Virus record (IMG/VR): IMGVR_UViG_3300047440_000809
Location: 1-64,000 of that record
DNA from: a virus
Length of the DNA: 64,000 nucleotides
Direction: 5' to 3' (one strand)
Below, one piece after another: positions 33,232 through 48,002 of this stretch (its first letter is position 1; every line of letters starts with the position of its first letter). The notes beneath the pieces were generated by a model, which saw nothing but the letters and a program-made list of their open reading frames with translations, ran no database searches and was not told where the DNA came from. Made by a program: the position numbers and the translations under genes.

Positions 33232-33495
33232 GTGCGCGCGCGCGAGGGGCAAAGAGTGATACAGGCGGAGCCGGTGGCCGAAGGCGACAAGGTAGTGGTG
33301 GCGCTCGGCACGGGCATCGGTCGGCTGGTTTACCCCTGCGTCGTGTCGAACGACCCCGTGCCCCACCCTGCCGGTGCCTTCTTCCGCGTGTCCCTCGACA
33401 TGTGCCCTCCGCGCCTGGAGGGGATCACCTGGGCTCGTGGATGGGAGGGTCTCGACGCGGACGCGTTCGTCGTCGCGGTGGCGCTCGGGTCGTGA
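33232..33495 (+). CDS. EGITWARGW-family small protein, member 1
   Basis: 87 aa. N-terminal part GDKVVVALGTGIGRLVYPCV looks like a small beta barrel; the C-terminus has EGITWARGWEGLDADAF then VVAVALGS, the family signature. Function unknown. Start GTG 33232 has no SD and an AT-rich -10-like tract in front; GTG 33256 is an alternative. Heads the tandem array. Confidence 0.65.
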   Translation: MRAREGQRVIQAEPVAEGDKVVVALGTGIGRLVYPCVVSNDPVPHPAGAFFRVSLDMCPPRLEGITWARGWEGLDADAFVVAVALGS

Positions 33496-33902
33496 AGGTC
33501 AGTGTCAGCACCGCGACCATCACGAGGCCGTCGTCGCCGGCGATGTCCCCGCGCGCCCGGCTCAAGGACGGCGACCACGTCGTGCTGTTGTTTCTCGGGA
33601 GCGTCGTGGAGATCATCATCTCGACCACGCGCAGCGGTACGCGGGACGACGGGCGCTACTGGGCGTCGCCGGCGATGTCCCCACGCGCCCAGCTCAAGGA
33701 CGGCGACCACGTCGTGCTGGCGTTCCTCGGGAGCGTCATGGAGATCATCGTCTCGACCGAGCGCAGCGGTACGCGGGACGACGGGCGCTTCTGGGCGAAG
33801 CCAATCGTGTTCGCGGCGAACGAAGAGGGGATCGCGTGGGCTCGCGGGTGGCGGACGCCAGCGGCACGTGCGTTGAGGGCCTTCGTGGGGCTGACGACGT
33901 GA
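33492..33902 (+). CDS. EGITWARGW-family protein, member 2, with internal duplication
   Basis: 136 aa from GTG 33492 (GTGA overlap). Contains a 44-residue tandem duplication (SPAMSPRARLKDGDHVVL...RSGTRDDGR) at DNA level 132 bp, starting at 33534 and 33666. Ends EGIAWARGWRTPAARALRA and FVGLTT. Suggests recent unequal recombination in the N-terminal barrel. Confidence 0.65.
   Translation: MKVSVSTATITRPSSPAMSPRARLKDGDHVVLLFLGSVVEIIISTTRSGTRDDGRYWASPAMSPRAQLKDGDHVVLAFLGSVMEIIVSTERSGTRDDGRFWAKPIVFAANEEGIAWARGWRTPAARALRAFVGLTT
33534..33797 (+). repeat. 132-bp in-frame tandem duplication
   Basis: Two copies, 33534-33665 and 33666-33797, with few differences (e.g. CTGTTGTTT versus CTGGCGTTC). Each encodes 44 residues of family member 2. 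Confidence 0.85.
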
Positions 33903-33938
33903 TGGACGTGCGCGAGACCTCGTGATATCAGTAGAGTC

Positions 33939-34247
33939 GTGATATCGGCAATCGTGTGGGGCACTGCCGTCGTTGGCGTCGTAGAGGCGGCCTGGATCGT
34001 CCTGATGGCCCTGGCAGTGGTGCCGTTCAAGGTGTCCGTCGTGTTCAACGAGAAGGTGTGCCTGGGGCGAGTCTCCTCACGAGCCTGGCTACAGCCCAAG
34101 ACCGTGTTCATCAGGATCGTAAGCCCCGTGGTTGCGAACGATCGAGTCATCGGCGTGACTCGCGGCGCCTACGGCGTCACGTGGTGCTACGGATGGGAGG
34201 GGCGCGCGTCGCAGGCACTTCGAGCGTTGGTGGCGCTCACGTCGTGA
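33939..34247 (+). CDS. EGITWARGW-family protein, member 3, membrane-anchored
   Basis: 102 aa from GTG 33939. An N-terminal membrane helix (AVVGVVEAAWIVLMALAVV) precedes the barrel; the signature is GVTWCYGWEGRASQALRA, ending ALVALTS. GTGATATCAG sits just upstream (TATCAG 7 nt before the start) and a second GATATC is inside codons 1-3. So this copy has its own promoter-like signal and a membrane location. Confidence 0.65.
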   Translation: MISAIVWGTAVVGVVEAAWIVLMALAVVPFKVSVVFNEKVCLGRVSSRAWLQPKTVFIRIVSPVVANDRVIGVTRGAYGVTWCYGWEGRASQALRALVALTS

Positions 34248-34531
34248 GGAGCGTGATGGCAAGCCTCCGGCAGACCTGGCGCGAGTGGCGCTGGAACCGC
34301 CGCTTCAGTGGAGCACCTGTGCTGTTTCGACACTCGTGTAGCGTGTGCAAAGCCGGTGCATACGTGGGCTTCATCCACAAGATGATTGACGGACAGGTAC
34401 TGCTCTCCGTCACGGTGGTGCCTGCGCAGACCTTCGACGTAGCTCTTGAAGATGAGGGCATATCGTGGACGCGCGCGATCGAAGGAGAAGCAGCTGACGC
34501 GTTTCGAGCGGCAGCGGTGTTGACGACGTGA
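34244..34531 (+). CDS. EGITWARGW-family protein, member 4
   Basis: 95 aa from GTG 34244 (GTGA). Basic N-terminus (SLRQTWREWRWNRRF), a CSVC pair, then beta strands and EGISWTRAIEGEAADAFRA, ending AAVLTT. The second W of the signature is replaced (RAI for RGW). Confidence 0.6.
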   Translation: MRSVMASLRQTWREWRWNRRFSGAPVLFRHSCSVCKAGAYVGFIHKMIDGQVLLSVTVVPAQTFDVALEDEGISWTRAIEGEAADAFRAAAVLTT

Positions 34532-34773
34532 GCGCCACCAACAAGAAGCTCCCGGTGAAGGCACTGGCGATCGTCGGCGACGCAGTCGTCAAGGGATGGC
34601 TGATCAGCCGCAACGGTGATGAATGGTACTGGCGCGACACCGATGGCGGTAACCTGTGGACGCGGAGCGAACGCGCCAAAATGTTAAACAGCGATCGTGG
34701 CATCTACTGGGCGCTAGGCTGGGACGGCGAAGAGGCCGACGCGTTCCGTGCGATGCGAGGGCTCGTGTCGTGA
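34528..34773 (+). CDS. EGITWARGW-family protein, member 5
   Basis: 81 aa from GTG 34528 (GTGA). Short barrel-like region with WYWRDTDGGNLW, then RGIYWALGWDGEEADAFRA, ending MRGLVS. Function unknown. Confidence 0.62.
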   Translation: MSATNKKLPVKALAIVGDAVVKGWLISRNGDEWYWRDTDGGNLWTRSERAKMLNSDRGIYWALGWDGEEADAFRAMRGLVS

Positions 34774-34991
34774 CAGCCGGCGACAAGATCACCGCAGCGC
34801 TGGACGGGCGACTCGTTGCCGACGTCGCTTGGATTGTAGATGGTCACAAGTTCACGGGGCAGCTGCGTTATGCTGGTGAGATACGTGTGTTCGACGAAGC
34901 GGATGAAGGCATCACCTGGCTGCGCGGTTGGCGCATGGAGGATGAAGATGCAGTAAAAGCATTCCTCGCAGCGCAGGCGTTGACGTCATGA
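34770..34991 (+). CDS. EGITWARGW-family protein, member 6
   Basis: 73 aa from GTG 34770 (GTGA). GDKITAALDGRLVADVAWIV, then EGITWLRGWRMEDEDAVKA, ending AAQALTS. The shortest intact member; its N-terminal ~45 residues show the minimal partner domain of the motif. Confidence 0.65.
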   Translation: MTAGDKITAALDGRLVADVAWIVDGHKFTGQLRYAGEIRVFDEADEGITWLRGWRMEDEDAVKAFLAAQALTS

Positions 34992-35479
34992 AGAAGCCGA
35001 CGAAGGGCAACAAGGTCACCGTGCTGATCCGAAGTCGCAGCCGCCTCCGTAAGGGCACGCTCGCGACACCGCTCGGTCATGACGGCTTCACCGCAAGTCT
35101 ACAGGGAGGCGGGTGGGCCACGTGCCTGGCGAAAGATGAAGGCTCGACGTGGGTGCGTGGTTGGCACGGGAATGAGAGCGTCGATGGAAAGGCGCTCCTT
35201 GCAGCGGCTGCGCTCACCGAGGTGAAGGCGCCAACCGGTGTGCGCTACTACGCTGTCGATGGCGTGCACGGCGACGACCCCAGCGCCGGGTTCTCCGATG
35301 TCTCGCCCGCCGAGGCGTCCACCCGAGCGTTCAAGACTTTGGGGGAGTTGAGGGCCGCCCTCCCAGCAGCTGGCGGCAGCCGCAAAATCGAGATCACGAT
35401 ATCGCGTGGTGGTGGCGTTGTGGACGGCGTCAAGCTTCACTGGCCTGACCGGGTCGTTGTGGTCCGAGGCGCCAAATGA
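34988..35479 (+). CDS. EGITWARGW-family protein, member 7, fused to a fibre-type module
   Basis: 163 aa, ATGA overlap at its start. Residues 1-80 are a family member (EGSTWVRGWHGNESVDGKA). Residues ~85-150 ([20 protein letters not shown], then STRAFKTLGELRAALP and RKIEITIS) closely resemble the start of the two beta modules in the giant fibre ([36 protein letters not shown]). The fusion links this family to virion fibre parts; it may bind or cap the fibre, or be a recombination product. Confidence 0.7.
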   Translation: MKKPTKGNKVTVLIRSRSRLRKGTLATPLGHDGFTASLQGGGWATCLAKDEGSTWVRGWHGNESVDGKALLAAAALTEVKAPTGVRYYAVDGVHGDDPSAGFSDVSPAEASTRAFKTLGELRAALPAAGGSRKIEITISRGGGVVDGVKLHWPDRVVVVRGAK

Positions 35480-35892
35480 AGAAGCTCAAGGTCGGGCAGC
35501 GCGTGACGGTGGTCGGCAAAGCCTCGGGCAAGATCGTGCACGCCACGTTTTACGGCGTGAGGCCGGCGCCGGACGGCGGCATGCGGATGGAGGTGCTGGT
35601 ACAGGTACTCGGCACGGTCGAAGTCCGTCGCGAATTCGAAAGCGAAGAGGGCATCACCTGGGCCCGCGGCTGGCGTGGCAAAGCGGTCGACGCCCTGCGC
35701 GCCTACATCGCGCTCAACGAGGTCCAATCTCCGCCTGACCTTGGCCTCTTCAGTGCCGGCGTCATCGGAAGCTTCATGCGCAAAACCTACGACAGATTCG
35801 TGGCGCTCTCGCCCGAGCAGCAGGCCGCGGTGGCAGCAGCCGGCGTCGCCGCGATCTCCGCGCTTGCCAAGCCCTTAGCTCGGAAGACTTGA
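35476..35892 (+). CDS. EGITWARGW-family protein, member 8, with helical tail
   Basis: 138 aa, ATGA overlap. Barrel-like start (VGQRVTVVGKASGKIVHATF), EGITWARGWRGKAVDALRA, then a ~55-residue Ala-rich tail (LGLFSAGVIGSFMRKTY, AAVAAAGVAAISALAK) that may touch membrane. The motif is not at the very C-terminus here, as in member 7. Confidence 0.65.
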   Translation: MKKLKVGQRVTVVGKASGKIVHATFYGVRPAPDGGMRMEVLVQVLGTVEVRREFESEEGITWARGWRGKAVDALRAYIALNEVQSPPDLGLFSAGVIGSFMRKTYDRFVALSPEQQAAVAAAGVAAISALAKPLARKT

Positions 35893-35917
35893 CATCCGTA
35901 ACGCGAGAACACACCAT
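35889..35917 (+). promoter_or_regulatory. Possible promoter before the second Xre gene
   Basis: A perfect -35 TTGACA (35889-35894) overlaps the stop of member 8. The -10 at 17 nt (CACCAT) is weak, so activation by a regulator may be needed. Confidence 0.35.
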
Positions 35918-35926
35918 CTACCCACC

Positions 35927-36160
35927 GTGTCAAGCACCACCCACATCGGCACCGAGATTCGTCGGGTCCGACTGAGCCTCGACATGACGCTGGAGGAGTT
36001 CGGCGAGCGCGTCGGGATCGCGTGGCAGACGATCGCCGCGTACGAGACCGGACGTGCGACGCCTCCGTCCGATCGGCTGTTGCGCATCCTGCACGCGACT
36101 CGAAAGGCCAAGGAGCCGTTCCGGGTCGAGCGGATCGCGCGAGCGCTGGCTGCGGCGTGA
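35927..36160 (+). CDS. Xre-family helix-turn-helix regulator
   Basis: 77 aa from GTG 35927. IGTEIRRVRLSLDMTLEEFG, then AWQTIAAYETGRATPPSDRL is a classic Xre HTH (about residues 10-62). No extra domain, so it may be a Cro-like partner of the regulator at 31170. It sits inside the family array and may control it. Confidence 0.78.
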   Translation: MSSTTHIGTEIRRVRLSLDMTLEEFGERVGIAWQTIAAYETGRATPPSDRLLRILHATRKAKEPFRVERIARALAAA

Positions 36161-36420
36161 ACGAGGTCTGGAGCCACACCTCCTACGCGACCGGTGACGG
36201 CGTCGATGTTCCTGCGCTGGCGTTGCGCATCACGGTCAGACACGACGGCGTGCTTCTGCGAGCTGTGCTGACGTCCGCCACGGCGACCTCCTACCAACTT
36301 TGTGGGCGCCCGGCGGTCGTGTTCGCGCAGGCGCGCGCCGACGAAGGGATCACCTGGGCCCGCGGGTGGGATGGACCGGCCGTGGATGCGCTCGCCGCCT
36401 ACAGGGCGCTCGCGTCGTGA
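36157..36420 (+). CDS. EGITWARGW-family protein, member 9
   Basis: 87 aa from GTG 36157 (GTGA). Beta-rich body (LALRITVRHDGVLLRAVLTS), then EGITWARGWDGPAVDALAA, ending YRALAS. Confidence 0.65.
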   Translation: MNEVWSHTSYATGDGVDVPALALRITVRHDGVLLRAVLTSATATSYQLCGRPAVVFAQARADEGITWARGWDGPAVDALAAYRALAS

Positions 36421-36593
36421 GCCCGAAACCCCGCCGCAGCCGTGCCAAGCCACGCCGGCACCGGCTGCGCGCCCCCTACTACCGCCCGCGCCGGCCGCTC
36501 TTCTCGGTCACGACCATCGCGCGCACGCTCGACAAGGGGTTCGTGTACCTGACGGTCGCCCTGGAGCGTCTGCTGGCGTCCACAGGCACGTGA
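36417..36593 (+). CDS. Small very basic protein
   Basis: 58 aa from GTG 36417 (GTGA). Arg/Lys/Pro-rich first half (KPRRSRAKPRRHRLR), then FVYLTVALERLLAS, a helix. Could bind nucleic acid. Function unknown. Confidence 0.5.
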   Translation: MSPKPRRSRAKPRRHRLRAPYYRPRRPLFSVTTIARTLDKGFVYLTVALERLLASTGT

Positions 36594-36606
36594 TAGACTA
36601 GTCTGC
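36594..36606 (+). promoter_or_regulatory. Leaderless-type -10 box before 36607
   Basis: TAGACT at 36594-36599 followed by exactly 7 nt and the GTG start, with no ribosome-binding site. Confidence 0.5.
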
Positions 36607-36888
36607 GTGGCGGTCTGCGAGTTCCTGCGCTGCCCAGGCTGCGGGCACGACAAGAAGGCCGAGCAATTCGGGCTCACACCGAGGGGCAATTTCGACCCCG
36701 ACAACGCCTACCCGAACGAGCTGTCGCTGCGGCGCACCACAATCGGCGGACGCGGCCGCTGTTCGGTCGAGCGCTTCCCTGCGCCGCTCCCCTTCGCGCT
36801 CGGGATGCGCCAGATGCTCAAGTACCGACTCGCCCAGCTCGAAGCTGACATCCGCGCTGCGGGTGTTGAGCTGCCGGACGACGAGTGA
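36607..36888 (+). CDS. Small zinc-ribbon protein
   Basis: 93 aa. LRCPGCGHDKKAEQFG near the start and a later Cys (GRGRCSVERF) indicate a zinc site; the C-terminal half is a helix (MLKYRLAQLEADIRAAG). Similar small phage proteins exist but function is unknown. GTG start is leaderless. Confidence 0.6.
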   Translation: MAVCEFLRCPGCGHDKKAEQFGLTPRGNFDPDNAYPNELSLRRTTIGGRGRCSVERFPAPLPFALGMRQMLKYRLAQLEADIRAAGVELPDDE

Positions 36889-36901
36889 TAATTTATTGGC
36901 G
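36866..36901 (+). promoter_or_regulatory. Leaderless promoter before 36902
   Basis: TTGAGC (36866-36871), 17 nt, TAATTT (36889-36894), 7 nt, GTG. This fits a sigma70-type promoter whose transcript would begin at or next to the start codon. Confidence 0.55.
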
Positions 36902-37135
36902 GTGAAGAACTTCCCCTCGGGGCAGCCCATCGTAGTCGCTGTGCACGGCAGGGTGCTCCAGGCGAAGACGACGCGCGGCGGGCGAAGGCGTGTGCGCTAC
37001 AAGATCGTCAAGGGCCCTCCGGGGTTCTTCGGTCCGAAGTTCCTGACGCTGCGCGAAGAGGGCATCATCTGGGCGCGTGGGTGGGAAGGCGAAGCCGCCG
37101 ACGCCCTTCGAGTTGCTGTTGCGTTATCGACATGA
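36902..37135 (+). CDS. EGITWARGW-family protein, member 10
   Basis: 77 aa from GTG 36902. IVVAVHGRVLQAKTTRGG, then EGIIWARGWEGEAADALRV, ending AVALST. It has its own promoter, so at least some members are expressed separately. Confidence 0.65.
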   Translation: MKNFPSGQPIVVAVHGRVLQAKTTRGGRRRVRYKIVKGPPGFFGPKFLTLREEGIIWARGWEGEAADALRVAVALST

Positions 37136-37431
37136 GGCTGCACATCGACCGCAACGCGCGTGTGACCGTCGTGCTGCGCGACACCGGCGAGATCGTGCAC
37201 GCATACGTGAAGAAGCCAGGCAAGGAGCTGAGGATCGTGTACGTGCGGGAGGGGACGATCACGTGGGCGCTGAATGTAAAGACCCAGCACTGGAATCCTG
37301 CGCGCCTGACCCCACGCGCCCTCGTTAACTACAACGTCCGACATCGCGACGAAGGCGTCGTCTGGGCGCGCGGCTGGGACGGGCCCGACGTGGATGCGCT
37401 GCGGGCGACCGTGGCGCTCACGACGCGCTGA
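37132..37431 (+). CDS. EGITWARGW-family protein, member 11
   Basis: 99 aa, ATGA overlap. After NARVTVVLRDTGEIVHAYVK comes REGTITWALNVKTQHW, which resembles a decayed first motif, and near the end EGVVWARGWDGPDVDALRA, ending TVALTTR. So this copy may carry one old and one good motif. Confidence 0.65.
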   Translation: MRLHIDRNARVTVVLRDTGEIVHAYVKKPGKELRIVYVREGTITWALNVKTQHWNPARLTPRALVNYNVRHRDEGVVWARGWDGPDVDALRATVALTTR

Positions 37432-37494
37432 GCGGAAGCCGCCGCCGGGACAGGGCTAGGTCGCCGAACCCCACCTGCCCTCGGCGGCGGATCC
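37432..37494. terminator. Hairpin between convergent genes
   Basis: Perfect 9-bp arms CCGCCGCCG (37439-37447) and CGGCGGCGG (37482-37490) enclose a loop that can pair further. No T-run follows, so it may stop RNA polymerase weakly in both directions. Confidence 0.5.
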
Positions 37495-37833
37495 CTAATT
37501 CTTCGCCGGTGGTTCCTCGCGCTCTTCGATCGCCGACTGATCTAACCCCCAGAGCAGGACGGCTTCGAACACCGGCGTGAGGAACACGGCGAGCGCCTGC
37601 GTCGGGAAGAGCGACGGGATGTGATGGACGGTGAAGTTCACCGGGTTGAGCCCGAGCACCGCCAGGCCACTACCGATCCAGAACCCCGAGCACGCAGGGC
37701 AGCGCAGCAGCCGATCGAACCATCCACGCGCGCGGCTCCACAGCGGTTGCATGATGCTCGATCGAGCGACGAGCCAGTGGATGGACGCGCAGAGAATGCC
37801 GAGCACGAAGACCTGCACCGGATCGACCGTCAC
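37495..37833 (-). CDS. Membrane protein with CPACSGFW motif (DUF1360-like)
   Basis: 112 aa from GTG 37833 (GTGA). Two or three hydrophobic segments (PVQVFVLGILCASIHWLVA, FWIGSGLAVLGL, ALAVFLTPVFEAVLLWG). CPACSGFWIG between them is typical of small phage inner-membrane proteins of the DUF1360 type. Function unknown. Confidence 0.65.
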   Translation of the reverse strand: MTVDPVQVFVLGILCASIHWLVARSSIMQPLWSRARGWFDRLLRCPACSGFWIGSGLAVLGLNPVNFTVHHIPSLFPTQALAVFLTPVFEAVLLWGLDQSAIEEREEPPAKN

Positions 37834-37994
37834 GACAGCCGCTCCGGCTCGACGTAGAACAGCCGCAACACAATCACCAGCGGCACGAACGGCGCGATGG
37901 CGAGCGTGTAGGCGACCCACTCCCTGCGGGGCATCGCGGGGTCGCGGCGCAGCCAGTCGTCGAGCGTGACGGTGATGGCCTTGCGGAGCTTCAC
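37830..37994 (-). CDS. Small membrane protein
   Basis: 54 aa from GTG 37994 (GTGA); ATG 38003 is an alternative. Charged N-terminus (KLRKAITVTLDDWLRRD), then a membrane helix (YTLAIAPFVPLVIVLRLFYV). Coupled with the larger membrane protein that follows; they may form a pair. Confidence 0.55.
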   Translation of the reverse strand: MKLRKAITVTLDDWLRRDPAMPRREWVAYTLAIAPFVPLVIVLRLFYVEPERLS

Positions 37995-38356
37995 GCTCGC
38001 CATTCTCCGCCGCGAAGCACGACATAAGCAGTGCGCATCGCCATTTCTGCCGCGACCATTGCTTCTTGCCGCGTCGAACACGTTCCAACGGCAGGCACAG
38101 GCCGCTTGTCTCCGTAGGAGGCGCCATGGCCGTACTTGTCCGTGATGTCCCACGACCAGTCGCCGGTCTCGCCAGCAGCAACGTGCGCGCGCAGATCGGC
38201 CACCTCGGCTACGTTACCGACCCACTTGCGGTGAACGCGGCCGTGGCCGCCACACTTTGGACAGCGCGCCTCGTCGTCGAACGGTGACGCATAGATGTGT
38301 GGTGGGTTGACTGCGTAGTCGTTGCCGCACGTGACGCATGTGACGTCGAATTTCAT
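37991..38356 (-). CDS. Zinc-ribbon protein
   Basis: 121 aa. CVTCGNDY and CPKCGGHGRV form a four-Cys ribbon (residues ~7-36) with a His between, followed by an alpha/beta region (TRQEAMVAAEMAMRTAYVVL). ATGA overlap at start. Confidence 0.6.
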   Translation of the reverse strand: MKFDVTCVTCGNDYAVNPPHIYASPFDDEARCPKCGGHGRVHRKWVGNVAEVADLRAHVAAGETGDWSWDITDKYGHGASYGDKRPVPAVGTCSTRQEAMVAAEMAMRTAYVVLRGGEWRA

Positions 38357-39394: not shown

Positions 39395-41596
39395 ATGGCC
39401 GTCGCACCACCGATGCTCAAAGCCCATCCGGACATGGCGAAGCTGAACAGCTTCTCCATGCCCTTCTTGGTTACGATCACGAAGCACCTTGTCCCACGCG
39501 GCGGCGAAGGGGTATCGGCGGTGGCAACGCAGCTGATGACCCGCGATCAGTTGCTCGACTACCAGGGCGTGAAGCTGCTGACGACCTTCGGCCCCGGCTA
39601 CTACCACTTCACCGTCGTGGACCCGGGCGGGCAGGGCGAGGACGAGTGGAAGGTGAAGCTCGGTACGGAAGCAGCAGCACAGGAGGGTCAGATGCCAGGT
39701 CCATTCGGTTCTCCAGCAGCGATGCCCACGGGCTCGGCGATGCCCAGTACACCGCTCGACTCCGACGTCAGGCAGATCGGCCCCGGCTGGTACTACAACG
39801 AGTCGATGGGGCTCCTCTACACGCCGTGGCGCGCGATGGTTCCGTGGAAGACCGGCGATCCGCTGCCGCAGCAGCCGACCTCGAACACGACGGCCACCGC
39901 GCCCGGCGGAGCGACGTGGGCCTACCCGGGGTGGAACGGCGGCGGGCCTTCGACTCCGTGGATGCCGGGCTGGGGCAACTTCCCCGCGGCCGAGGACTCC
40001 AAGATCGAAACGCTCAAGATGCAGCTCGAAGAGCAGAAGCGTCAGCTCGAAGCCGAGCAGCGTCGACGCGACGAGGACAAGCGTGATCGTGAGGCCGAGG
40101 CGATCCGCACCGAGATGCGCCGGCAGCAGGAGGAGACCAACAAGCGAATCGAGACGCTCATCGAGAAGCTCATGTCGAAGCCCGAGGGGCCATCGGCGCG
40201 CGAGCTGGCCTTGGAGCGGGAGGCCGCGGATGAGCGGCGCCGGCGCGAGGACATGGAGCGCGAGGAGCGTCGGGAGACGCAGCGCCGTGAAGAGGCGCGG
40301 CTCGCCGACGAGCGTCACCGCGAGGAGATGCGCGTGTTCCGCGAGGCGGCGGCCAACAAGCCGGACCCCATGATGAACTTGCTCACGCAGTTCTTGACCA
40401 CGTCGCAGGTCACGCAGGGCGAGAACGTGCGCATGATCCGCGAGTCGAGCCAGCAGGCCACCGCGGCGGCCGAGCGCGGCGCGACGCAGGTCTTGGAGCT
40501 GGCGCGCACCCAGCGCGATGGTGCGATCGATGGTGCCAAGCTGACCCTGGACATGATGAAGGACAACATGGGAGTCCAGAAGGACTTCTTCATGCAGATG
40601 ATCGAGATGAAGGGCAGCGACAACACGCCCTGGTGGGGTAGCATGATCCAGGAAGGGTTGAACCGGGTTGGCGCGGTCGGGGAGATGATGGCCGCTCGGC
40701 AACAGCAGCAACAGCAAGAGCCGCAGTACGTGCCGCCCCCGCCGCGCCAACAGCAACAGCAGTCGCGCGCGCAGACGGTGCCCGGCATCCCGGTCGCGCC
40801 CGCGATCCCGTCCGTCGGGCGCCCCGGCTTCATCGACACGGGGCTGCGCCCGCCGGGCGCCGAGCACGACGTCGAGAACGACGAGTGGCTGCTCCCGGGC
40901 GGGCACCGCGTGAAGAACTCGCTCGTGCAGCAGCGTGGGTGGAAGTTCGCCCTCGACGACCTGGCGAGGCGCGTGTCGCACGCGGCGCCGGTGATGGTGG
41001 TCCCTGCGCCGGCTCCCGCGGCCGACGTGCCGATGAACGGCGCCGGCAATGGCGTGGGTCATGCCCCTCCCGCGGCGGCAGCTCCACCAGCGGCAGCTCC
41101 GCGCGGGCGGCGAGCAGCGACAGCGAGTGCCAGGAAGCCCCCCAGGCGGCGAGCGCCCGCAGCTCCCCCGATGGCGCCGCCGGCAGACCCCAAGGGATAC
41201 ACCGGGGCGGAGGTCGCGGCAGCATCCATCCACGACGTGTTCGAGGCGACCAAGGTATCGCCCGACCCGCAGTTCTTCGGCGAGGTCTGGAACTACGTGC
41301 AGCAGATGCGCGCGAATCCGCCAACACCGGAGGCAGCAGTCAGCTACATCATGCAGGCGCGGTCGTACGTGCGCTCGCGGGGGAAGAACTCGCCGGCGAT
41401 GGAACTGCTCGACGCCGAGCACTTCGAGGTGCTCGTGATGCGGCTCTTCCCCGAGCTGCCCGAGGACTACCAGCACGCCGTCGTGGAGGGGCTGCGTGCG
41501 CAGTTGTCGGGCGGCGGCGGCGAGGAAGGTGGTGGCGAAGGCGGCGGGGAGGGTGAGGGCGAAGATGACGACGAAGGCGAGGAGGCACAACAATGA
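39395..41596 (+). CDS. Large coiled-coil protein, possibly virion or scaffold
   Basis: 733 aa. A folded N-terminus (~1-100, NSFSMPFLVTITKHLVPRGG), a Gly/Pro/Trp-rich linker, a long charged coiled coil (~208-330, EEQKRQLEAEQRRRDEDKRD), helices, a Gln-rich stretch, a Pro/Ala linker, a compact helical domain (~620-705) and a Gly/Glu/Asp-rich tail. Function is not clear; scaffolding, tape-like or internal virion roles are possible. The large antisense frame over it is a shadow. Confidence 0.6.
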   Translation: MAVAPPMLKAHPDMAKLNSFSMPFLVTITKHLVPRGGEGVSAVATQLMTRDQLLDYQGVKLLTTFGPGYYHFTVVDPGGQGEDEWKVKLGTEAAAQEGQMPGPFGSPAAMPTGSAMPSTPLDSDVRQIGPGWYYNESMGLLYTPWRAMVPWKTGDPLPQQPTSNTTATAPGGATWAYPGWNGGGPSTPWMPGWGNFPAAEDSKIETLKMQLEEQKRQLEAEQRRRDEDKRDREAEAIRTEMRRQQEETNKRIETLIEKLMSKPEGPSARELALEREAADERRRREDMEREERRETQRREEARLADERHREEMRVFREAAANKPDPMMNLLTQFLTTSQVTQGENVRMIRESSQQATAAAERGATQVLELARTQRDGAIDGAKLTLDMMKDNMGVQKDFFMQMIEMKGSDNTPWWGSMIQEGLNRVGAVGEMMAARQQQQQQEPQYVPPPPRQQQQQSRAQTVPGIPVAPAIPSVGRPGFIDTGLRPPGAEHDVENDEWLLPGGHRVKNSLVQQRGWKFALDDLARRVSHAAPVMVVPAPAPAADVPMNGAGNGVGHAPPAAAAPPAAAPRGRRAATASARKPPRRRAPAAPPMAPPADPKGYTGAEVAAASIHDVFEATKVSPDPQFFGEVWNYVQQMRANPPTPEAAVSYIMQARSYVRSRGKNSPAMELLDAEHFEVLVMRLFPELPEDYQHAVVEGLRAQLSGGGGEEGGGEGGGEGEGEDDDEGEEAQQ

Positions 41597-42320: not shown

Positions 42321-42502
42321 GCGACGTCTGCGCGTGCGGCCCCGAGCGCGACACGAAGGACAAGGAGCTGGTCAGCAGGGGCGTGCCAGCCATGATGCTC
42401 TGGTTCTGTTGCGACTGCGGGAAGCCCCGGCCCGGGACGCCCGTCGCGCCCGGCGGCGAGATGTACAAGCCGGTCGATGGAAGCGCCACTCGAACGCCCT
42501 GA
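42317..42502 (+). CDS. Small zinc-binding protein
   Basis: 61 aa from GTG 42317 (GTGA). CACGPERD and FCCDCGKPRPG give a likely zinc site. Function unknown. Confidence 0.55.
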   Translation: MSDVCACGPERDTKDKELVSRGVPAMMLWFCCDCGKPRPGTPVAPGGEMYKPVDGSATRTP

Positions 42503-42653
42503 CGCCGACGACATCCTCGTCGTGTGCGCGAACTGCGGCCACATCGAGGACTTCCACGCGGAGGAGAAGGAAGGGCAGGACCGCTGGTGCCTCGCGCTGA
42601 ACTGTCACGGCTGTCCCGGCTGGGCGCCGAAGTCGACGCGCGCCGCGATTTGA
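42477..42653 (+). CDS. Small zinc-ribbon protein
   Basis: 58 aa. VVCANCGHIEDFHAEEK, then WCLALNCHGCPGWAPK: classic paired Cys. Begins 26 nt before the end of the previous gene. Function unknown. Confidence 0.55.
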   Translation: MEAPLERPDADDILVVCANCGHIEDFHAEEKEGQDRWCLALNCHGCPGWAPKSTRAAI

Positions 42654-42686
42654 CGACCAGCGGCGCCTGGGCGTACGCTCGTCTGC
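42650..42686 (+). promoter_or_regulatory. Leaderless promoter before 42687
   Basis: TTGACG (42650-42655), 18 nt, TACGCT (42674-42679), 7 nt, ATG. One of the clearest examples of the leaderless pattern in this window. Confidence 0.6.
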
Positions 42687-42896
42687 ATGGCACGACTCAG
42701 GCACCGTGGTCTCCGTAGGTTCATCTTCGGCGCCCCCAAGCGTCGCAAGCGGCGCGCCTCGGGCGTCGCTTCTCGCGCCAAGAACGCCCCCAAGCACTGC
42801 AAGGTGTCACTCGGCTCGTGCATGCGCGGGTCGGGCGGCCGGGCCAAGGCCAGCAAGTGCATGAAGGGCTACTGGCGCTGCATCAAGGGCGGCTGA
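42687..42896 (+). CDS. Small basic Cys-containing protein
   Basis: 69 aa, strongly basic (GLRRFIFGAPKRRKRRASG) with four Cys in the second half (HCKVSLGSCMRG, KCMKGYWRCIKGG). May be a DNA-associated protein; function unknown. First gene of a run of six small basic proteins. Confidence 0.6.
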   Translation: MARLRHRGLRRFIFGAPKRRKRRASGVASRAKNAPKHCKVSLGSCMRGSGGRAKASKCMKGYWRCIKGG

Positions 42897-42900
42897 CCGC

Positions 42901-43200: not shown

Positions 43201-43505
43201 TGCGCGTCCAGAAGCACGGCAGGATCGTAGACATCCCGGTGCGCGCCGGCACCGTGGTCAAGCTGCGCGAGAACCGATCCGGCAACGTGACGGGGCAGAA
43301 GGCGATCGTCGTCGGCGCGATGAAGCCGAACGACTTTTCGCGGGCCTACGGCAAGCAGATCTACGTCTGCACGGTCTACCGAGACGGCCCGAGCATCAGC
43401 GAGAAGGGCGCGGGCGACGTGTACCCTGTCGGACGCGCGAAGCGTGTTCCGAAGATGTGCAAGGAAGCGCTCGTGGACTACAAGAAGTCCTACGGGGATC
43501 GCTGA
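43200..43505 (+). CDS. Small protein of unknown function
   Basis: 101 aa, TGATG overlap. Beta-rich, with VVKLRENRSGNVTGQKAIVV and YVCTVYRDGPS. SH3-like fold is possible. Unknown. Confidence 0.55.
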   Translation: MRVQKHGRIVDIPVRAGTVVKLRENRSGNVTGQKAIVVGAMKPNDFSRAYGKQIYVCTVYRDGPSISEKGAGDVYPVGRAKRVPKMCKEALVDYKKSYGDR

Positions 43506-43732
43506 TGGCGAAGAAGAGCTACAACGCAATGGCACAAGTCGTGTGCGCCATCCGTGGTGGCTCGCGAACATCGATCGGCTTGTCGACCATCCTCGACATC
43601 AAGGCGAAGACGAAGGCCGGCGCGGAGCGCATCGCGAAGAGGACATGGCGGTCGCGCGGCGAGCTTCCTGTGCCTGGCATGAAGTACAAGGCGAAGTGCG
43701 TGCTGCATCCGTCGGTCGAGGAAGCGTACTGA
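43505..43732 (+). CDS. Small basic protein
   Basis: 75 aa, overlaps by TGATG. MAKKSYNAMAQVVCAIRGG, then DIKAKTKAGAERIAKRTW, which looks like a helix that follows strands. Unknown. Confidence 0.55.
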   Translation: MAKKSYNAMAQVVCAIRGGSRTSIGLSTILDIKAKTKAGAERIAKRTWRSRGELPVPGMKYKAKCVLHPSVEEAY

Positions 43733-43953
43733 TGGCCCGCCGCACCTACCGTCCGGGCTCGGGTATGCGTGAGATCGCCGCGCATCAGGTCCGGCGAGTT
43801 CGTCAGGCACTCGCGGCGGGGTTGTGCAAAGAAGCGGAGCTTCGTCTCGACAGCCTCGTGCACAGCCGAGCCAACCGCGAGCGTGTGGTCCGCTCGGGGA
43901 CGATCGCGCGGCTGCACGCGGCGGTTCGTCGTTGCCCTGTGGGGGGACGCTGA
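43732..43953 (+). CDS. Small basic helical protein
   Basis: 73 aa, TGATG overlap. REIAAHQVRRVRQALAAGLC and a second Arg-rich helix (SRANRERVVRSGTIARLHAA). Unknown. Confidence 0.5.
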   Translation: MARRTYRPGSGMREIAAHQVRRVRQALAAGLCKEAELRLDSLVHSRANRERVVRSGTIARLHAAVRRCPVGGR

Positions 43954-44294
43954 TGGCACGCAAGTGTGACTGGCACTACGCCCCGAAGACGATCCTGACG
44001 ATGAAGGACGGCACGCGTCCCGTCGTGAGCGCACGCGTCTACCCTCCCGGGCAGCATCCGGCTGCATCGCCGATCGTGAAGACGGTGACGGCCGTGCAGC
44101 TCACTAACGATCGGGGCAATTCGCGCTGGTACGGCTTCGACGATGCGCGCATCGCGGCCAACCTGCGGCTCGTCGCGTGCGGGGGTTTCATCAACCCCCG
44201 GAACGAGATCGCGAAGGACTGGAAGCGCTGTGGGAAGATTTGCAACAACCTGTCTGGATCTCTCGCGGGGTCTCGACGCCGCCGCCGTCGATGA
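43953..44294 (+). CDS. Small protein with basic tail
   Basis: 113 aa, TGATG overlap. Body with TVTAVQLTNDRGNSRWYGFD and a C-terminal RRRRRR run. Unknown. Confidence 0.5.
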   Translation: MARKCDWHYAPKTILTMKDGTRPVVSARVYPPGQHPAASPIVKTVTAVQLTNDRGNSRWYGFDDARIAANLRLVACGGFINPRNEIAKDWKRCGKICNNLSGSLAGSRRRRRR

Positions 44295-44557
44295 GCCGCA
44301 AGCGCTACTGCCACGCCGGCTACGACGACGAGGGCCGGGCGCTCTTCACCGAGCACGGCTCTGACGGCACCGAGATGCGCACCATCGTCGGGTCCCCCGA
44401 ATCCGGCAAGCCCATACCACCGGGGCGCGGGCTCGCGCTCGTCACGGCGGAGGCGGATGGCAGGCACGTGACCATGGAAGACGTCGTCATGCCGGGGCCG
44501 GCGCAGGTGGCGACCGAGAGCTACCGGCGCGGCTGGGACGCGACGTTCAAGAACTGA
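44291..44557 (+). CDS. Small protein of unknown function
   Basis: 88 aa, ATGA overlap. KRYCHAGYDDEGRALFTEHG, ending ESYRRGWDATFKN. Converges with the remnant of a family gene; they overlap by 11 nt. Unknown. Confidence 0.5.
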   Translation: MSRKRYCHAGYDDEGRALFTEHGSDGTEMRTIVGSPESGKPIPPGRGLALVTAEADGRHVTMEDVVMPGPAQVATESYRRGWDATFKN

Positions 44558-44687
44558 TGAGCGCCGCGTAGGCGAGGAGAGCGTCGACGTCGGGGCCCGA
44601 CCAGCCGCGTGCCCACACGATGCCCTCTTCGTGGACGAAGTCCCCGCTGGCCTGCCCGGTCGAGGCACTCCACCAAAACGTTCCGCC
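44547..44687 (-). pseudogene. Truncated EGITWARGW-family gene, member 12
   Basis: The minus strand is open for 46 codons and ends with EGIVWARGWSGPDVDALLA then YAALISS, a good family C-terminus. There is no start codon in frame before the motif except a GTG inside it, and a stop lies just upstream (44690-44688). So the N-terminal half is missing. Its last codons (CTC ATC AGT TCT TGA) repeat the end of the upstream membrane gene, as if recombination joined the two. Confidence 0.6.
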
Positions 44688-44703
44688 TCAAGTCAAGAAC
44701 TGA
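44547..44703. repeat. 11-bp direct repeat TCAAGAACTGA around the truncated family gene
   Basis: Copies at 44547-44557 and 44693-44703. On the minus strand both are 3' ends of reading frames (TCAGTTCTTGA). They bracket the remnant of family member 12. Confidence 0.6.
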
Positions 44704-44806
44704 GTATCCAGAGCCAGCGGACCAGCACGCAGAAGCAGTACCCGAGCACGAGCACCAAGAAGACGATGAGCCCGCCCCACCCGATCTTCTCTTTGTCCGG
44801 GTTCAT
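44693..44806 (-). CDS. Tiny membrane protein (37 aa)
   Basis: ATG 44806 to TGA 44693. MNPDKEKIGWGG then LIVFLVLVLGYCFCVLV, one membrane helix, then RWLWILSS. Start overlaps a TGA (TGATG) that belongs to the copied 3' end of the 45277 gene. Before the cassette arrived it was probably coupled directly to that gene. Confidence 0.55.
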   Translation of the reverse strand: MNPDKEKIGWGGLIVFLVLVLGYCFCVLVRWLWILSS

Positions 44807-45306
44807 CAGTTGCTCGCCGCGTGAAGTTGTTTGACGACGAGGCTGCCTAGCGCATGTACGGCCCGTAGTTCCGCGCGAGGCAGAACTCGAACGCCGTCTT
44901 GCGTAGCTCGCGGGGGAGCTTCGCGGCCGTGACGATCCGCCCGGCCTCCTGCAAGCGCTTGATGGTCTGATAATTGGCCCCGCGTTCGCGCTTCGCCTCG
45001 GCGCGCTCGCGCTCGATCTTCTGCTTGCGCTCTTCGGCGGCCTTCGCGCGGACGGCCTTCTTGATCGCGTTCACGGCCGCACCGGTCCACCCGCGGCACC
45101 ACCCGTTGCTGTGGCCCTCGGCCGACAGGTAGTGCGATCCACCCGTACCGGCGGGTTTACCGTCCGTCCAGTCGAACGTGTGGCTGTCGATGTTCGTGAC
45201 GGTCGCGCGGATCGTGTTGATGGCGATCAAGACCTTGTCGCCCTTCTTGAGTGCTACCTTCGCTATCGTCTCCATCTCAGTTGCTCCCGGCGTGAAGTTG
45301 TTTGAC
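44806..45306. repeat. 30-bp direct repeats flanking family member 13
   Basis: Copies at 44806-44835 and 45277-45306 differ at 2 of 30 positions (TCAGTTGCTC..GCGTGAAGTT and onward). The right copy is the 3' end of the 45277 gene (VKQLHAGSN and stop on the minus strand); the left copy codes the same residues (VKQLHAASN) but has no gene attached. The family gene at 44847-45275 lies exactly between, a cassette-like arrangement. Confidence 0.75.
44847..45275 (-). CDS. EGITWARGW-family protein, member 13, with helical tail
   Basis: 142 aa. N-terminal barrel (KKGDKVLIAINTIRATVTNI) and a divergent signature GHSNGWCRGWTGAAVNAIKK, then a long charged helix (KIERERAEAKRERGANYQTI) and a C-terminal part. 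ATG 45275 is 1 nt after the upstream stop. It lies between two 30-bp direct repeats. Confidence 0.65.
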   Translation of the reverse strand: METIAKVALKKGDKVLIAINTIRATVTNIDSHTFDWTDGKPAGTGGSHYLSAEGHSNGWCRGWTGAAVNAIKKAVRAKAAEERKQKIERERAEAKRERGANYQTIKRLQEAGRIVTAAKLPRELRKTAFEFCLARNYGPYMR

Positions 45307-45798
45307 AGCGTCGCGTACCAGCAGCTCCTCCGACAGCGTGGGGTCGAGACCCGACACGACCGGCTCGAACTCGTACTTCTTGTAGCCCAGCTCCTTGAGC
45401 GCCCCGCGCACGGCATCGAGCTTCATGCGCTGCGCGGGGGCGACCTTGGGCTCGGCAGCGTCCTCCTCCAGCTTCTCCATGAAGTGCCGCTGGACAGTGC
45501 GCCGGCGCTCGGCCACGTGCATCTCGTCGACTACCCTCCCGACGCGTGCCTCGCGCCCGTGCCAGACCCACGAGAAGAACCCGCGGACCGCGCCGTGCGG
45601 GATCACGAGCATCAGCCCGACCCCGAGCATCACGAGCGCCACGAGCGTGGAGCCGGTCTGCCCGAGCAGCGTGGCCGAGGCGCGGGAGATGAGCTGCCCG
45701 ATGAGACCGCACGTGCCGGCGAAGGCGTAGAAGAACGTGGCGGCGAGCAGCAAGAAGCCGATGAGGAGGCGCTTACGGGCGGGGTGGAGGTTCTTCAT
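45277..45798 (-). CDS. Two-span membrane protein with C-terminal helical domain
   Basis: 173 aa. Two hydrophobic segments (RLLIGFLLLAATFFYAFAG, TLVALVMLGVGLMLVI), then a charged linker and a small domain LDAVRGALKELGYKKYEFEP that resembles the three-helix end of RuvA. ATG 45798 has GGAGTAAC before it. Its 3' end is the source of the direct repeat. Confidence 0.6.
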   Translation of the reverse strand: MKNLHPARKRLLIGFLLLAATFFYAFAGTCGLIGQLISRASATLLGQTGSTLVALVMLGVGLMLVIPHGAVRGFFSWVWHGREARVGRVVDEMHVAERRRTVQRHFMEKLEEDAAEPKVAPAQRMKLDAVRGALKELGYKKYEFEPVVSGLDPTLSEELLVRDAVKQLHAGSN

Positions 45799-45803
45799 GG
45801 GGG

Positions 45804-45998
45804 TTACTCCTCGCAGTCTTGGTTGCAGTCTTCGCAGTTGGCGCGTTCCTGGTCACGATGGTCAGGACACACCTCGGCTACGTGGGCGGTAGTGTCATCG
45901 GTGCAGTTAGCAGCCATCCACGCTTGTGCCGTCTCGGGCGAGTAGAACTCGTCGGCGACGACCCCCTCCTCGTCCGTGAAAACACCGTATTCAGTCAC
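45804..45998 (-). CDS. Small acidic Cys-rich protein
   Basis: 64 aa from GTG 45998. Acidic (MTEYGVFTDEEGVVADEFYS) with CPDHRDQE and a final CEDCNQDCEE. Zinc-binding possible; could mimic DNA by charge, but this is a guess. TATAGT lies 8 nt before the GTG, so probably leaderless. Confidence 0.55.
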   Translation of the reverse strand: MTEYGVFTDEEGVVADEFYSPETAQAWMAANCTDDTTAHVAEVCPDHRDQERANCEDCNQDCEE

Positions 45999-46218
45999 GT
46001 GCCAACACTATATCAACATCCGTGCCAACCCTCTTGATATCAGCAGCCGCAGCTTCCTGGGCCACCGTGACGGCAATCGTGCTCCCACAGATGATGCAAT
46101 CCCGCCACACGAACAAGACTGTGCCCTTTTCGCCCCACTGGGCTCGGGGGTTGGAGGTCAGCGCGGCCAGCATCTTGGGGTTGCCGGCAATCACCTCGTG
46201 GTCTTCGGTCAGGTGCAT
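45991..46218 (-). CDS. Small protein with CxxC
   Basis: 75 aa from ATG 46218. MHLTEDHEVIAGNPKMLAAL, VLFVWRDCIICGSTIAVTVA; a CIIC pair. GATATC lies 6 nt before the ATG, at the distance of a -10 box. Its end overlaps the next gene's start (TGA within the GTG region). Function unknown. Confidence 0.5.
   Translation of the reverse strand: MHLTEDHEVIAGNPKMLAALTSNPRAQWGEKGTVLFVWRDCIICGSTIAVTVAQEAAAADIKRVGTDVDIVLARD
45999..46012 (-). promoter_or_regulatory. Leaderless-type -10 box before 45998
   Basis: On the minus strand GATATAGTGTTGGCACGTG: TATAGT (46012-46007), 8 nt, GTG. The phrase TGTTGGC after the -10 recurs before genes at 14392, 49655, 49880 and 53015. Confidence 0.45.
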
Positions 46219-46264
46219 GGTCGTGATATCGACAGGTCGTGTTATGTCTTTAGCAGCGCCCGCT

Positions 46265-46609
46265 TCATGGCTTCTTGTCCGTCGTGAGCGCGTGCGCGGC
46301 GATAGCAGCTCGGAAGGACTCCACGGCACCATTGACGACGTCGAGGGTAGGAGCGAGCTTGGCGTGCGGCAAAGACGTAACCGCGAGAGCACACGACGAA
46401 CAGATGGCCACCAAGGACCCCGCGGCGATGACCGTGCCCTGGGGTTCAACACGCAACTGCTGGGTAATCGACTGTCTGAAGTGGTCCTTGCACCGGTCCT
46501 GTTGGCAGAACGGACACACCGCAAAGAACGCCCGGTCGCACCGTGTTGAAGGCTCGCTGTGCGATCCCGGAATCTCCTCGTCACACACGCGCATCGTCCG
46601 TGTCGACAT
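46265..46609 (-). CDS. Cys/His-rich zinc protein
   Basis: 114 aa. CDRAFFAVCPFCQQDRCKDH and CSSC make a zinc-finger pattern resembling B-box or LIM-type spacing. The ATG overlaps the upstream stop (TGATG). Function unknown. Confidence 0.6.
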   Translation of the reverse strand: MSTRTMRVCDEEIPGSHSEPSTRCDRAFFAVCPFCQQDRCKDHFRQSITQQLRVEPQGTVIAAGSLVAICSSCALAVTSLPHAKLAPTLDVVNGAVESFRAAIAAHALTTDKKP

Positions 46610-46950
46610 CACTTCACCCCCAACAGCGCTCGGGCCGCCAAGAACGCCGCGCGAGCTTCGGGTCCGTGGCCGCGCGTCCAGGTGACCATCTCGTCGTTCT
46701 CCCAGACGCCGCCGGTACGTGCACCGCACTTCCAGTAGATGCGGTTACCGCGATCCGTGTGCCACTGCGCCTCGTCGTTCGCGGTGACGGTAGCGCGCAA
46801 CAGCCGCAACGGGCGGTCGAGAACCCATCGACGCGGTTGCTTCTTGCGCGGCTTCGTGAACCCGTTGCGCCCGCGCTCGAACACCTGCGTCGCATCGGAG
46901 CCCGAGTCCACCACCGTGATGCCGAAGCCGATGCAGGGCAGCTCGCTCAT
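46609..46950 (-). CDS. EGITWARGW-family protein, member 14 (divergent)
   Basis: 113 aa, ATGA overlap. The C-terminus has DEMVTWTRGHGPEARAAF and ARALLGVK: the VTW-RG core is kept but GW is GH. N-terminal part is Arg/Lys-rich (TKPRKKQPRRWVLDRPLRLL). A distant member; less sure than those in the array. Confidence 0.55.
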   Translation of the reverse strand: MSELPCIGFGITVVDSGSDATQVFERGRNGFTKPRKKQPRRWVLDRPLRLLRATVTANDEAQWHTDRGNRIYWKCGARTGGVWENDEMVTWTRGHGPEARAAFLAARALLGVK

Positions 46951-47372
46951 CGCCTGATGGCCTCGCGGATCATCAAGCTCACGGCGTTGGCGGGCGTGCC
47001 GAGAGCGATTGCAGCTCGGATGGCGGGGAGGTGCTTGCTTAGCCTCGCAGCGAGCTTTTCAACGCGCATGCAGCTGTAATCGGGGTACGTGTAGTCGATT
47101 GCCCCGATCAGGTATTTGTCTTCGTGACGTACGTACCAGGAGAAGTCGCTGGACCTCTCGTAACGCACGAGTGGCATGCCAAGGGCCTCAGCAAGATCCT
47201 TGTGCTCGCCACCGATCTCAACAGCGTTGTCCCTGCCGCCGAGCACGTCGAACGCACGTTCTCGCGCCTCGGTGTACGCCTTACCAGCCGCTTGCTCAGC
47301 ATTCCACCGCGCGCGTGTCTCCGGCGATGCTGGATGCTTCGGGCGAAACCGCGGGCCTCCTCCAGTCTTCAC
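46947..47372 (-). CDS. Unknown protein
   Basis: 141 aa from GTG 47372 (GTGA). Central DFSWYVRHEDKYLIGAID, helical end (LPAIRAAIALGTPANAVSLM). No family recognised. Confidence 0.55.
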   Translation of the reverse strand: MKTGGGPRFRPKHPASPETRARWNAEQAAGKAYTEARERAFDVLGGRDNAVEIGGEHKDLAEALGMPLVRYERSSDFSWYVRHEDKYLIGAIDYTYPDYSCMRVEKLAARLSKHLPAIRAAIALGTPANAVSLMIREAIRR

Positions 47373-47593
47373 CGCCGCACCACTCTCCAGCCCCCGGCGC
47401 CCACGTCGAGCACCACGGCGAGCCGGTGCATCCGGAGCGCGTACTGGAGCATCACCGCGAACTCCGCGACCAGCTCCTCCACGGCGGGCGTGAAGATGAA
47501 GCCGACGTGGCACACCCTCCCCACGAATGCCAGCGCGCGGAACTGCGTGCTCGGGGTGATCTCGATCGTCGGGTCGGTGGGGTTCGTGCTCAC
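47369..47593 (-). CDS. Small protein of unknown function
   Basis: 74 aa from GTG 47593 (GGAG upstream, GTGA overlap). FRALAFVGRVCHVGFIFTPA, then helices. Not recognised. Confidence 0.5.
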   Translation of the reverse strand: MSTNPTDPTIEITPSTQFRALAFVGRVCHVGFIFTPAVEELVAEFAVMLQYALRMHRLAVVLDVGAGGWRVVRR

Positions 47594-47751
47594 GTTCTCC
47601 TCCTCGCTGGTGGTTTCCACTGCTCGAACGCCGCGCTGACGTACTCGCGCAGGGTCATCCCCTGCCAGCTCGCGCGGCGGACCATCGCCATGTACTCCGG
47701 ACCGGAGAGCCGCACGATGAGGTAGCGCATGAGGCCGTCGAGCGTCTTCAT
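47590..47751 (-). CDS. Small ribbon-helix-helix-like protein
   Basis: 53 aa. MRYLIVRLSGPEYMAMVRRA, then SWQGMTLREYVSAAFEQW resembles the RHH (Arc/MetJ) fold: one strand followed by two helices. Might regulate transcription. ATGA overlap at start. Confidence 0.5.
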   Translation of the reverse strand: MKTLDGLMRYLIVRLSGPEYMAMVRRASWQGMTLREYVSAAFEQWKPPARRRT

Positions 47752-48002
47752 GACGACACCAGCGCCATCGCGACGCGGAGCGCACGAACCGTTGTCGAGT
47801 TCTTGTGGTGCCACCCGTGGACCCACGTGACGCCCTCGGCTGCAAGAGCGGCGTACGCACTCGCACCGTACTTCCAGGTGGCGCCAGACAGACGCGCGGT
47901 GTAGTAGCGGAAGTTGGGACCCCCATCGTTGATTGCGTCGACGACACCGTAGAGGACGCGGCCGTCCGTGCTCAGGCTCGTGATCTTGTCGCCGACCTTC
48001 AC
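47748..48002 (-). CDS. EGITWARGW-family protein, member 15
   Basis: 84 aa from GTG 48002 (GTGA). Opens VKVGDKITSLSTDGRVLYGV, like member 6, and ends AEGVTWVHGWHHKNS, TTVRALRVAMALVSS. A clear member on the minus strand, outside the array. Confidence 0.65.
   Translation of the reverse strand: MKVGDKITSLSTDGRVLYGVVDAINDGGPNFRYYTARLSGATWKYGASAYAALAAEGVTWVHGWHHKNSTTVRALRVAMALVSS

What the first reader, a model, noticed from the sequence alone, without database searches (positions are those of the whole stretch)
33232..48002. A 15-copy small-protein family with the C-terminal motif EGITWARGW
Eleven members form a near-continuous tandem array (33232-37431) and four more lie at 44547, 44847, 46609 and 47748. 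All share (D/E)EG(I/V)TWxRGWxG, then a helix with xDALRAxxAL and usually end ALTS/ALTT. The N-terminal 40-70 residues differ but often begin with GDKVT-like strands, like a small beta barrel. Individual copies add a membrane helix (member 3), a duplication (2), a fibre module (7) or helical tails (8, 13). I know of no described family with this motif. Conserved tail plus variable body suggests a common partner and varied targets, for example host factors or defence proteins. Function is not shown.
Basis: partly seen in the sequence, partly recalled or inferred. Interest (0 to 1): 0.92.

Follow-up and report, generated by a model that had tools for sequence, protein, structure and literature searches.

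The report
Expanding small-barrel gene family in phages
A group of uncultured tailed phages carries from one to about twenty copies of a previously undescribed small protein with an SH3-like barrel fold, multiplied in tandem between the same neighbouring genes; it looks like a fast-diversifying toolkit aimed at the host cell, but its targets are unknown.

Summary
All 15 copies are found by a profile HMM, and six more lie in the rest of the 104.6-kb virus record (21 in all). One of the 15 (44550-44687) is a startless remnant.

The family has no credible match in Pfam, PHROGs or PDB sequences; single members tested against NCBIfam and ~50,700 phage records found nothing. It occurs in five other IMG/VR contigs, all sharing the window phage's DNA polymerase at 63-67% identity: about 16-18, 19-20, 8, 1 and 1 copies. 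More distant polymerase relatives lack it.

Two AlphaFold models, the second from an alignment without window sequences, agree (pLDDT 90 and 95): an SH3-like barrel plus a C-terminal helix. 'EGxxWxRGW' is the last turn and strand, so the 'tail' is part of the domain. Synonymous sites in it are saturated, so conservation is at protein level.

Four phages share one locus (gene L - members + XRE regulator + CPxCG-type gene - gene R1) holding 1, 2, 7 and 11 members.

Most likely: operon-encoded host-interaction or counter-defence proteins diversified by tandem duplication (about 0.45; function inferred). A new family of a known fold in an extreme paralogue array.

The parts
32190..33101 (-). Gene L: conserved left neighbour of the array, divergently transcribed, function unknown
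   Evidence: Homologues at 36-41% identity beside the same locus in three other phages; start chosen by comparison with relatives
33102..33255 (.). A+T-rich intergenic region with nested inverted repeats (19-nt arms 33152-33170/33229-33247; 15-nt arms 33172-33186/33213-33227) at the head of the array
   Evidence: strongest inverted repeat of the record; equivalents with 30-nt and 43-nt arms at the same place in G004 and G005
33256..33495 (+). Member 1
33492..33902 (+). Member 2, with in-frame 132-nt tandem duplication (33532-33663 / 33664-33795, 92% identical)
33939..34247 (+). Member 3, with predicted N-terminal membrane helix
   Evidence: hydropathy 2.5
34256..34531 (+). Member 4
34528..34773 (+). 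Member 5 (4-nt overlap with members 4 and 6)
34770..34991 (+). Member 6, modelled: SH3-like barrel plus helix
   Evidence: pLDDT 89.7
34988..35479 (+). Member 7, with about 80-residue C-terminal extension of unknown kind
35476..35892 (+). Member 8, with C-terminal hydrophobic helical extension
35927..36160 (+). XRE-type helix-turn-helix regulator inside the array
   Evidence: Pfam HTH_3 E 8e-10; homologues 51-65% identical in the same locus of three phages
36157..36420 (+). Member 9
36607..36888 (+). Small conserved protein with an N-terminal CPxCG-type motif, inside the array
   Evidence: Homologues 44-53% identical in the same locus of three phages; no family match
36902..37135 (+). Member 10
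37132..37431 (+). Member 11 (4-nt overlap with member 10)
37498..38181 (-). Gene R1: conserved right neighbour of the array
   Evidence: Homologues 52-55% identical beside the same locus in three phages
39395..41596 (+). Gene R2: conserved right-flank gene, glutamine/proline-rich
   Evidence: Homologues 33-35% identical beside the same locus in three phages
44550..44687 (-). Member 12: C-terminal remnant without a usable start codon, probably decayed
44847..45275 (-). Member 13, with charged tail predicted by eye to be helical; orthologue in G001 at 6304-6726
   Evidence: support 97/92
46609..46950 (-). Member 14
47748..48002 (-). Member 15; abuts the 3' end of a conserved gene at 48002-48475

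Best explanation
A clade-specific phage family of mostly 65-100-residue single-domain proteins with an SH3-like small barrel and a capping C-terminal helix. Shown: family, fold (predicted), coding constraint, restriction to one phage clade as far as searched, and copy-number variation at fixed syntenic loci that also carry a conserved XRE-type regulator. Inferred: the genes are co-expressed from an operon, controlled by the XRE protein and the inverted-repeat region at the array's head. The conserved ends (GDxIT, EGxxWxRG, ALxAAxxL) hold the scaffold, and the variable strands 2-4 and loops bind different host proteins, either to take over the host or to block its defences. New specificities arise by duplicating a member and letting the copy diverge. 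Some copies gain membrane helices or tails that may place them elsewhere in the cell.
For: 21 copies in this record and about 16-18, 19-20, 8, 1 and 1 in the five relatives. All six records share DNA polymerase at 63-67% identity, and the family is not found in more distant polymerase relatives. The same locus between gene L and gene R1 holds 1 (G004), 2 (G005), 7 (G003) and 11 (window) members. A second locus also varies in copy number. The tree mixes cross-phage orthologues with phage-specific clusters: G003 8 label changes vs 16.5 shuffled, all groups 26 vs 33.6. Recent in-frame tandem duplication in member 2. Same fold from two alignments, pLDDT 89.7 and 95.1. Protein-level constraint on the motif. 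Variable middle, conserved ends. HTH gene inside the operon, as in loci of small anti-defence genes with their HTH repressor (PMC7648647). Duplicated small viral anti-defence genes are precedented: AcrID1 in rudiviruses (PMC11065993).
Against: No target, expression timing or phenotype is known, and the host is unknown. The HTH protein matches no named Aca family; XRE regulators are common in phages. No promoter above chance was found at the array. SH3-like barrels also bind nucleic acids. Variability could be relaxed constraint rather than selected diversity: the recent duplication in member 2 has 7 non-synonymous to 2 synonymous codon changes, about neutral. G004 has only one copy, so the expansion is dispensable.
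Confidence: 0.45

Rival explanations
1. Nucleic-acid-binding regulators: the barrels are KOW- or Sm-like RNA/DNA binders that tune phage or host transcription or translation, and the copies recognise different sites.
For: The nearest solved folds include KOW, Tudor, PWWP and RapA SH3-like domains, and the only (not significant) PDB sequence hit is a KOW protein, E 1.4. Phage G has a comparable ~35-copy expansion of a zinc ribbon suggested to bind DNA (PMC7824862).
Against: No Pfam KOW or other nucleic-acid-binding match. Foldseek finds no match with E <= 0.001. No conserved basic patch: apart from R60 and a K/R/P column at position 10, conserved columns are not basic.
Confidence: 0.2
2. Neutral or selfish amplification: tandem duplication multiplies a dispensable gene, and copies drift and decay.
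For: Copy number varies from 1 to 21; one remnant (44550-44687) and a partial duplication in member 2 are present.
Against: Synonymous sites in the motif are saturated while residues are kept, so old copies are under purifying selection. Orthologues persist across phages whose polymerases are 63-67% identical. Nearly all copies are intact, with their own frame best by codon score.
Confidence: 0.15
3. Virion or adsorption accessory proteins: small barrels that decorate the capsid or connect tail-fibre modules.
For: The array lies near the terminase and tail-fibre genes in this record; one member in G001 ends in collagen-like Gly-X-Y repeats (42511-42879), as fibres do.
Against: Most members are single short domains with no fibre or capsid match. 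Several carry membrane helices, which suits a cytoplasmic or membrane role better.
Confidence: 0.1
4. Toxin-antitoxin-like or superinfection-exclusion modules: membrane-anchored and soluble copies regulated by the HTH protein, which resembles MqsA-type antitoxin HTHs.
For: The HTH resembles the MqsA/TIGR03830 HTH part, below its cut-off; two members have N-terminal membrane helices.
Against: No pairing of one toxin with one antitoxin; one HTH serves 1 to 11 members; no TA family match among members.
Confidence: 0.1

Closest known systems
SH3-like small beta-barrel domains (Tudor, KOW, PWWP, RapA; phage DUF2187-type proteins)
   Same: Predicted fold: five-stranded barrel with a 3-10 turn before the last strand
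   Different: No sequence match and no Foldseek E <= 0.001; adds a conserved C-terminal helix and the EGxxWxRG(W/H) motif
AcrID1 paralogue expansions in Sulfolobus rod-shaped viruses (PMC11065993)
   Same: A small viral protein family duplicated many times in close proximity, with probable functional diversification
   Different: No sequence relation found through family libraries; higher copy number per genome here; anti-defence activity not shown
Phage G ~35-copy zinc-ribbon expansion (PMC7824862)
   Same: Lineage-specific amplification of one small domain in a phage genome
   Different: Different fold; here the same locus can be followed through four phages with 1, 2, 7 and 11 copies
Anti-CRISPR/anti-defence operons with an HTH repressor (Aca) (PMC7648647)
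   Same: Runs of small unknown genes with an HTH gene in the same locus
   Different: Here nearly all the genes are one family; the HTH matches no named Aca family
Nip, SH3-like counter-defence protein of phage phi3T (PMC11984713)
   Same: Phage protein with predicted SH3-like domains that acts against a host defence
   Different: 279 aa, two SH3-like domains plus an HU-like dimerisation domain; direct sequence relation was not tested

Membership tests
SH3-like small beta-barrel fold | Five-stranded barrel with short 3-10 helix before strand 5 | tested here: met
   Two AlphaFold models, the second from an alignment with no window sequences
SH3-like small beta-barrel fold | Significant structural match to one described SH3-like family | tested here: not met
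   Foldseek vs PDB and BFVD: none with E <= 0.001
KOW / NusG-type domain | Match to the KOW sequence profile | tested here: not met
   No Pfam KOW match in 56 members at E <= 0.1
Tudor domain | Aromatic cage for methylated ligands | not testable with these tools
Any described family in Pfam, PHROGs or NCBIfam | Profile match to members | tested here: not met
   NCBIfam tested on one member only; only single weak hits of the number expected by chance
Anti-CRISPR / anti-defence locus | Small genes in one operon with an HTH (Aca-like) regulator | tested here: inconclusive
   XRE HTH present and conserved in four phages, but no named Aca match and XRE genes are common
Anti-CRISPR / anti-defence locus | Inhibits a host defence system | not testable with these tools
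   Needs expression and plaque assays
Known or candidate defence proteins (PADLOC) | Profile match | tested here: not met
   One of 56 members hits candidate PDC-M64C at E 4e-4; ten window members tested singly: none

The most novel reading that the evidence does not exclude
A phage lineage keeps a dedicated, expandable repertoire: one barrel scaffold, multiplied by tandem duplication at fixed loci under one regulator, with variable strands that yield binders to many different host defence or takeover targets, comparable in logic to a multigene antigen or receptor family.
Probability: 0.35. Interest if true: 0.85.

Novelty: new variant of a known kind. Interest (0 to 1): 0.62.

Why it matters
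It is a protein family that none of the searched libraries holds, with up to about twenty copies per phage and one syntenic locus caught at 1, 2, 7 and 11 copies. That gives a natural series for studying how phages create new host-interacting proteins by duplicating one scaffold. If the members block defences or host processes, each copy is a candidate inhibitor with a ready comparison set.

Tried and rejected
The search for related loci with the 14-row and 6-row alignments gave no loci; relatives came from degenerate DNA patterns followed by HMM scoring. The 72 bacterial contigs matching the motif were rejected: their HMM scores come from short motif-only or unrelated proteins. A large protein family with 'DEGIRWIRGY' in other viral contigs (e.g. 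L102, L103) was rejected as a chance motif inside a long unrelated protein. One match among 284 bacterial genomes of one phylum lies in a protein that I recognise from memory as glycyl-tRNA synthetase beta chain and was rejected. Common-partner tail module: rejected as a necessary inference, because the tail is part of the barrel domain. DNA-level conservation or recent gene conversion of the tail: rejected, codon identity equals chance. The PADLOC single hit was not traced to its member.

Full report
OBSERVATION. The window is the first 64 kb of a 104,563-base virus record. It is a tailed phage: PolA-type DNA polymerase, helicases, terminase large subunit and collagen-like tail fibre are recognised. 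A profile built from the 11 tandem members recovers all 15 claimed copies and further copies in the remaining 40 kb at 83.5-87 kb and 100.2 kb. After iteration there are 21 copies in the record; reversed sequences reach only E = 0.06. Every member's own frame has the best codon score among six frames, and its GC3 is like that of known genes. Members 4 to 8 and 10 to 11 overlap their neighbours by 4 nt, as translationally coupled genes do. Copy 44550-44687 is a remnant without a usable start. An XRE gene (Pfam HTH_3) and a small CPxCG-type gene sit inside the array.

FAMILY AND DISTRIBUTION. No member has a credible match in Pfam, PHROGs or the PDB sequence set, and single members tested against NCBIfam (one), INPHARED phages (three) and plasmids (one) found nothing. 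Degenerate DNA patterns found five relatives in IMG/VR: G001 (3300050821_013777, 121.5 kb), G002 (3300005843_000153, 18 kb), G003 (3300028800_000006, 102.9 kb), G004 (3300049215_000496, 89.1 kb) and G005 (3300042191_000299, 94.5 kb). With the 56-member profile they hold about 16-18, 1, 19-20, 1 and 8 copies. All five share the window phage's DNA polymerase at 63-67% identity. A polymerase-based survey gave three further short fragments of the clade (58-64% identity) and more distant relatives; none of these records has the family, including a 94-kb record at 30% identity (the fragments are under 9 kb and say little). No bacterial genome gave a match that held up. So the family is, as far as searched, specific to this phage clade.

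FOLD. AlphaFold on member 6 with 56 family sequences: pLDDT 89.7, strands 6-11, 14-24, 27-32, 37-42, a 3-10 turn, strand 50-52, helix 60-72. On the single G004 copy, with an alignment that contains no window sequences: pLDDT 95.1, pTM 0.83, same order of elements. This is an SH3-like barrel with an added C-terminal helix. Foldseek lists Tudor, KOW, PWWP and RapA barrels but nothing at E <= 0.001. The motif (D)EGxxWxRG(W/H) is the 3-10 turn plus strand 5, and ALxAAxxL is the helix. Column information is high at G8, I/V11, T12, E54, G55, W58, R60, G61, A72, L73, A75 and L79, and mostly low in strands 2-4. The 'tail' is thus the structural end of the domain.

CONSTRAINT. For the aligned 25-codon ends of nine array members, 184 of 431 same-residue codon pairs are identical, against 187.0 expected from codon usage: synonymous sites are saturated while residues persist, so selection acts on the protein.

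EVOLUTION. The tree (62 rows, 79 columns, weakly resolved) contains cross-phage orthologue pairs (window 44847-45275 with G001 6304-6726, 97/92; 85590-85862 with G001 45509-45808, 94/81; G001 45144-45512 with G005 75015, 97/83) and phage-specific clusters. Synteny is the clearest evidence. In four phages the same flanks, gene L on one side and genes R1 and R2 on the other, enclose the XRE gene, the CPxCG-type gene and a variable number of members: one in G004 (between 73608 and 76414), two in G005 (28924-32360), seven in G003 (1821-6139, reversed) and eleven in the window. G001 lacks gene L and the XRE gene in its contig. A second locus, bounded by homologues of the gene at record position 86509-87282, holds about 5 (window record), 4 (G003), 3 (G005) and 12 (G001) members. 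Duplication continues: member 2 contains an in-frame 132-nt tandem repeat, 92% identical, with 7 non-synonymous and 2 synonymous codon differences.

EXTENSIONS. Member 3 and the G002 copy have N-terminal membrane helices, member 8 a hydrophobic C-terminal helix, member 13 and its G001 orthologue a conserved charged tail, and one G001 copy a collagen-like tail.

MECHANISM. The most likely reading is a set of host-interaction or counter-defence proteins: one scaffold, variable faces, tandem duplication at fixed loci under an XRE regulator. Shown: family, predicted fold, constraint, clade restriction as far as searched, locus-specific copy-number variation. Inferred: co-expression, regulation by the XRE protein, binding by the variable strands, host or defence targets. 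Precedents are AcrID1 duplications in rudiviruses (PMC11065993), anti-defence loci with HTH repressors (PMC7648647) and an SH3-like counter-defence protein (PMC11984713). Rivals are nucleic-acid-binding regulators (cf. the phage G zinc-ribbon expansion, PMC7824862), neutral amplification, virion accessories and TA-like modules.

VERDICT. I file it as a new family of a known fold in an extreme, syntenically traceable paralogue array: new variant of a known kind, interest 0.62.

Noticed in passing
window 33102-33255; G004 74605-74820; G005 30100-30410: Between divergent gene L and the array lies an A+T-rich island (48-52% GC against about 66%) with large inverted repeats whose outer arms are (GC)n: 19+15 nt in the window phage, 30 nt in G004, 43 nt in G005, with different sequences. 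It is the strongest inverted repeat of the record and could be an origin, operator or promoter region.
   Followed up: partly
window 35927-36160 and 36607-36888: The XRE gene and the CPxCG-type small gene inside the array are conserved (51-65% and 44-53% identity) in the same locus of three other phages and look more conserved than the family members.
   Followed up: partly
window 44700-44830 (minus strand): A short ORF with one membrane helix (MNPDKEKIGWGG...) ends just upstream of the member-12 remnant, in another frame; together they may be a decayed membrane-anchored member.
   Followed up: no
window 45280-45798 (minus strand): A 173-aa protein with weak FtsK_4TM and RuvA C-terminal matches lies beside member 13; homologues at 56, 29 and 29% identity in G001, G005 and G004.
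   Followed up: no
window 20248-26823: A 2191-aa collagen-like tail fibre protein; a second, 694-aa one lies at record position about 74193-76277.
   Followed up: no
G001 42511-42879 (L094): A family member that ends in collagen-like Gly-X-Y repeats, joining the barrel domain to a fibre-type module.
   Followed up: no
record position about 100502-101614 (L005 18502-19614): A DegT/DnrJ/EryC1 aminotransferase next to the isolated member at 100245-100496, suggesting phage-encoded sugar modification.
   Followed up: no
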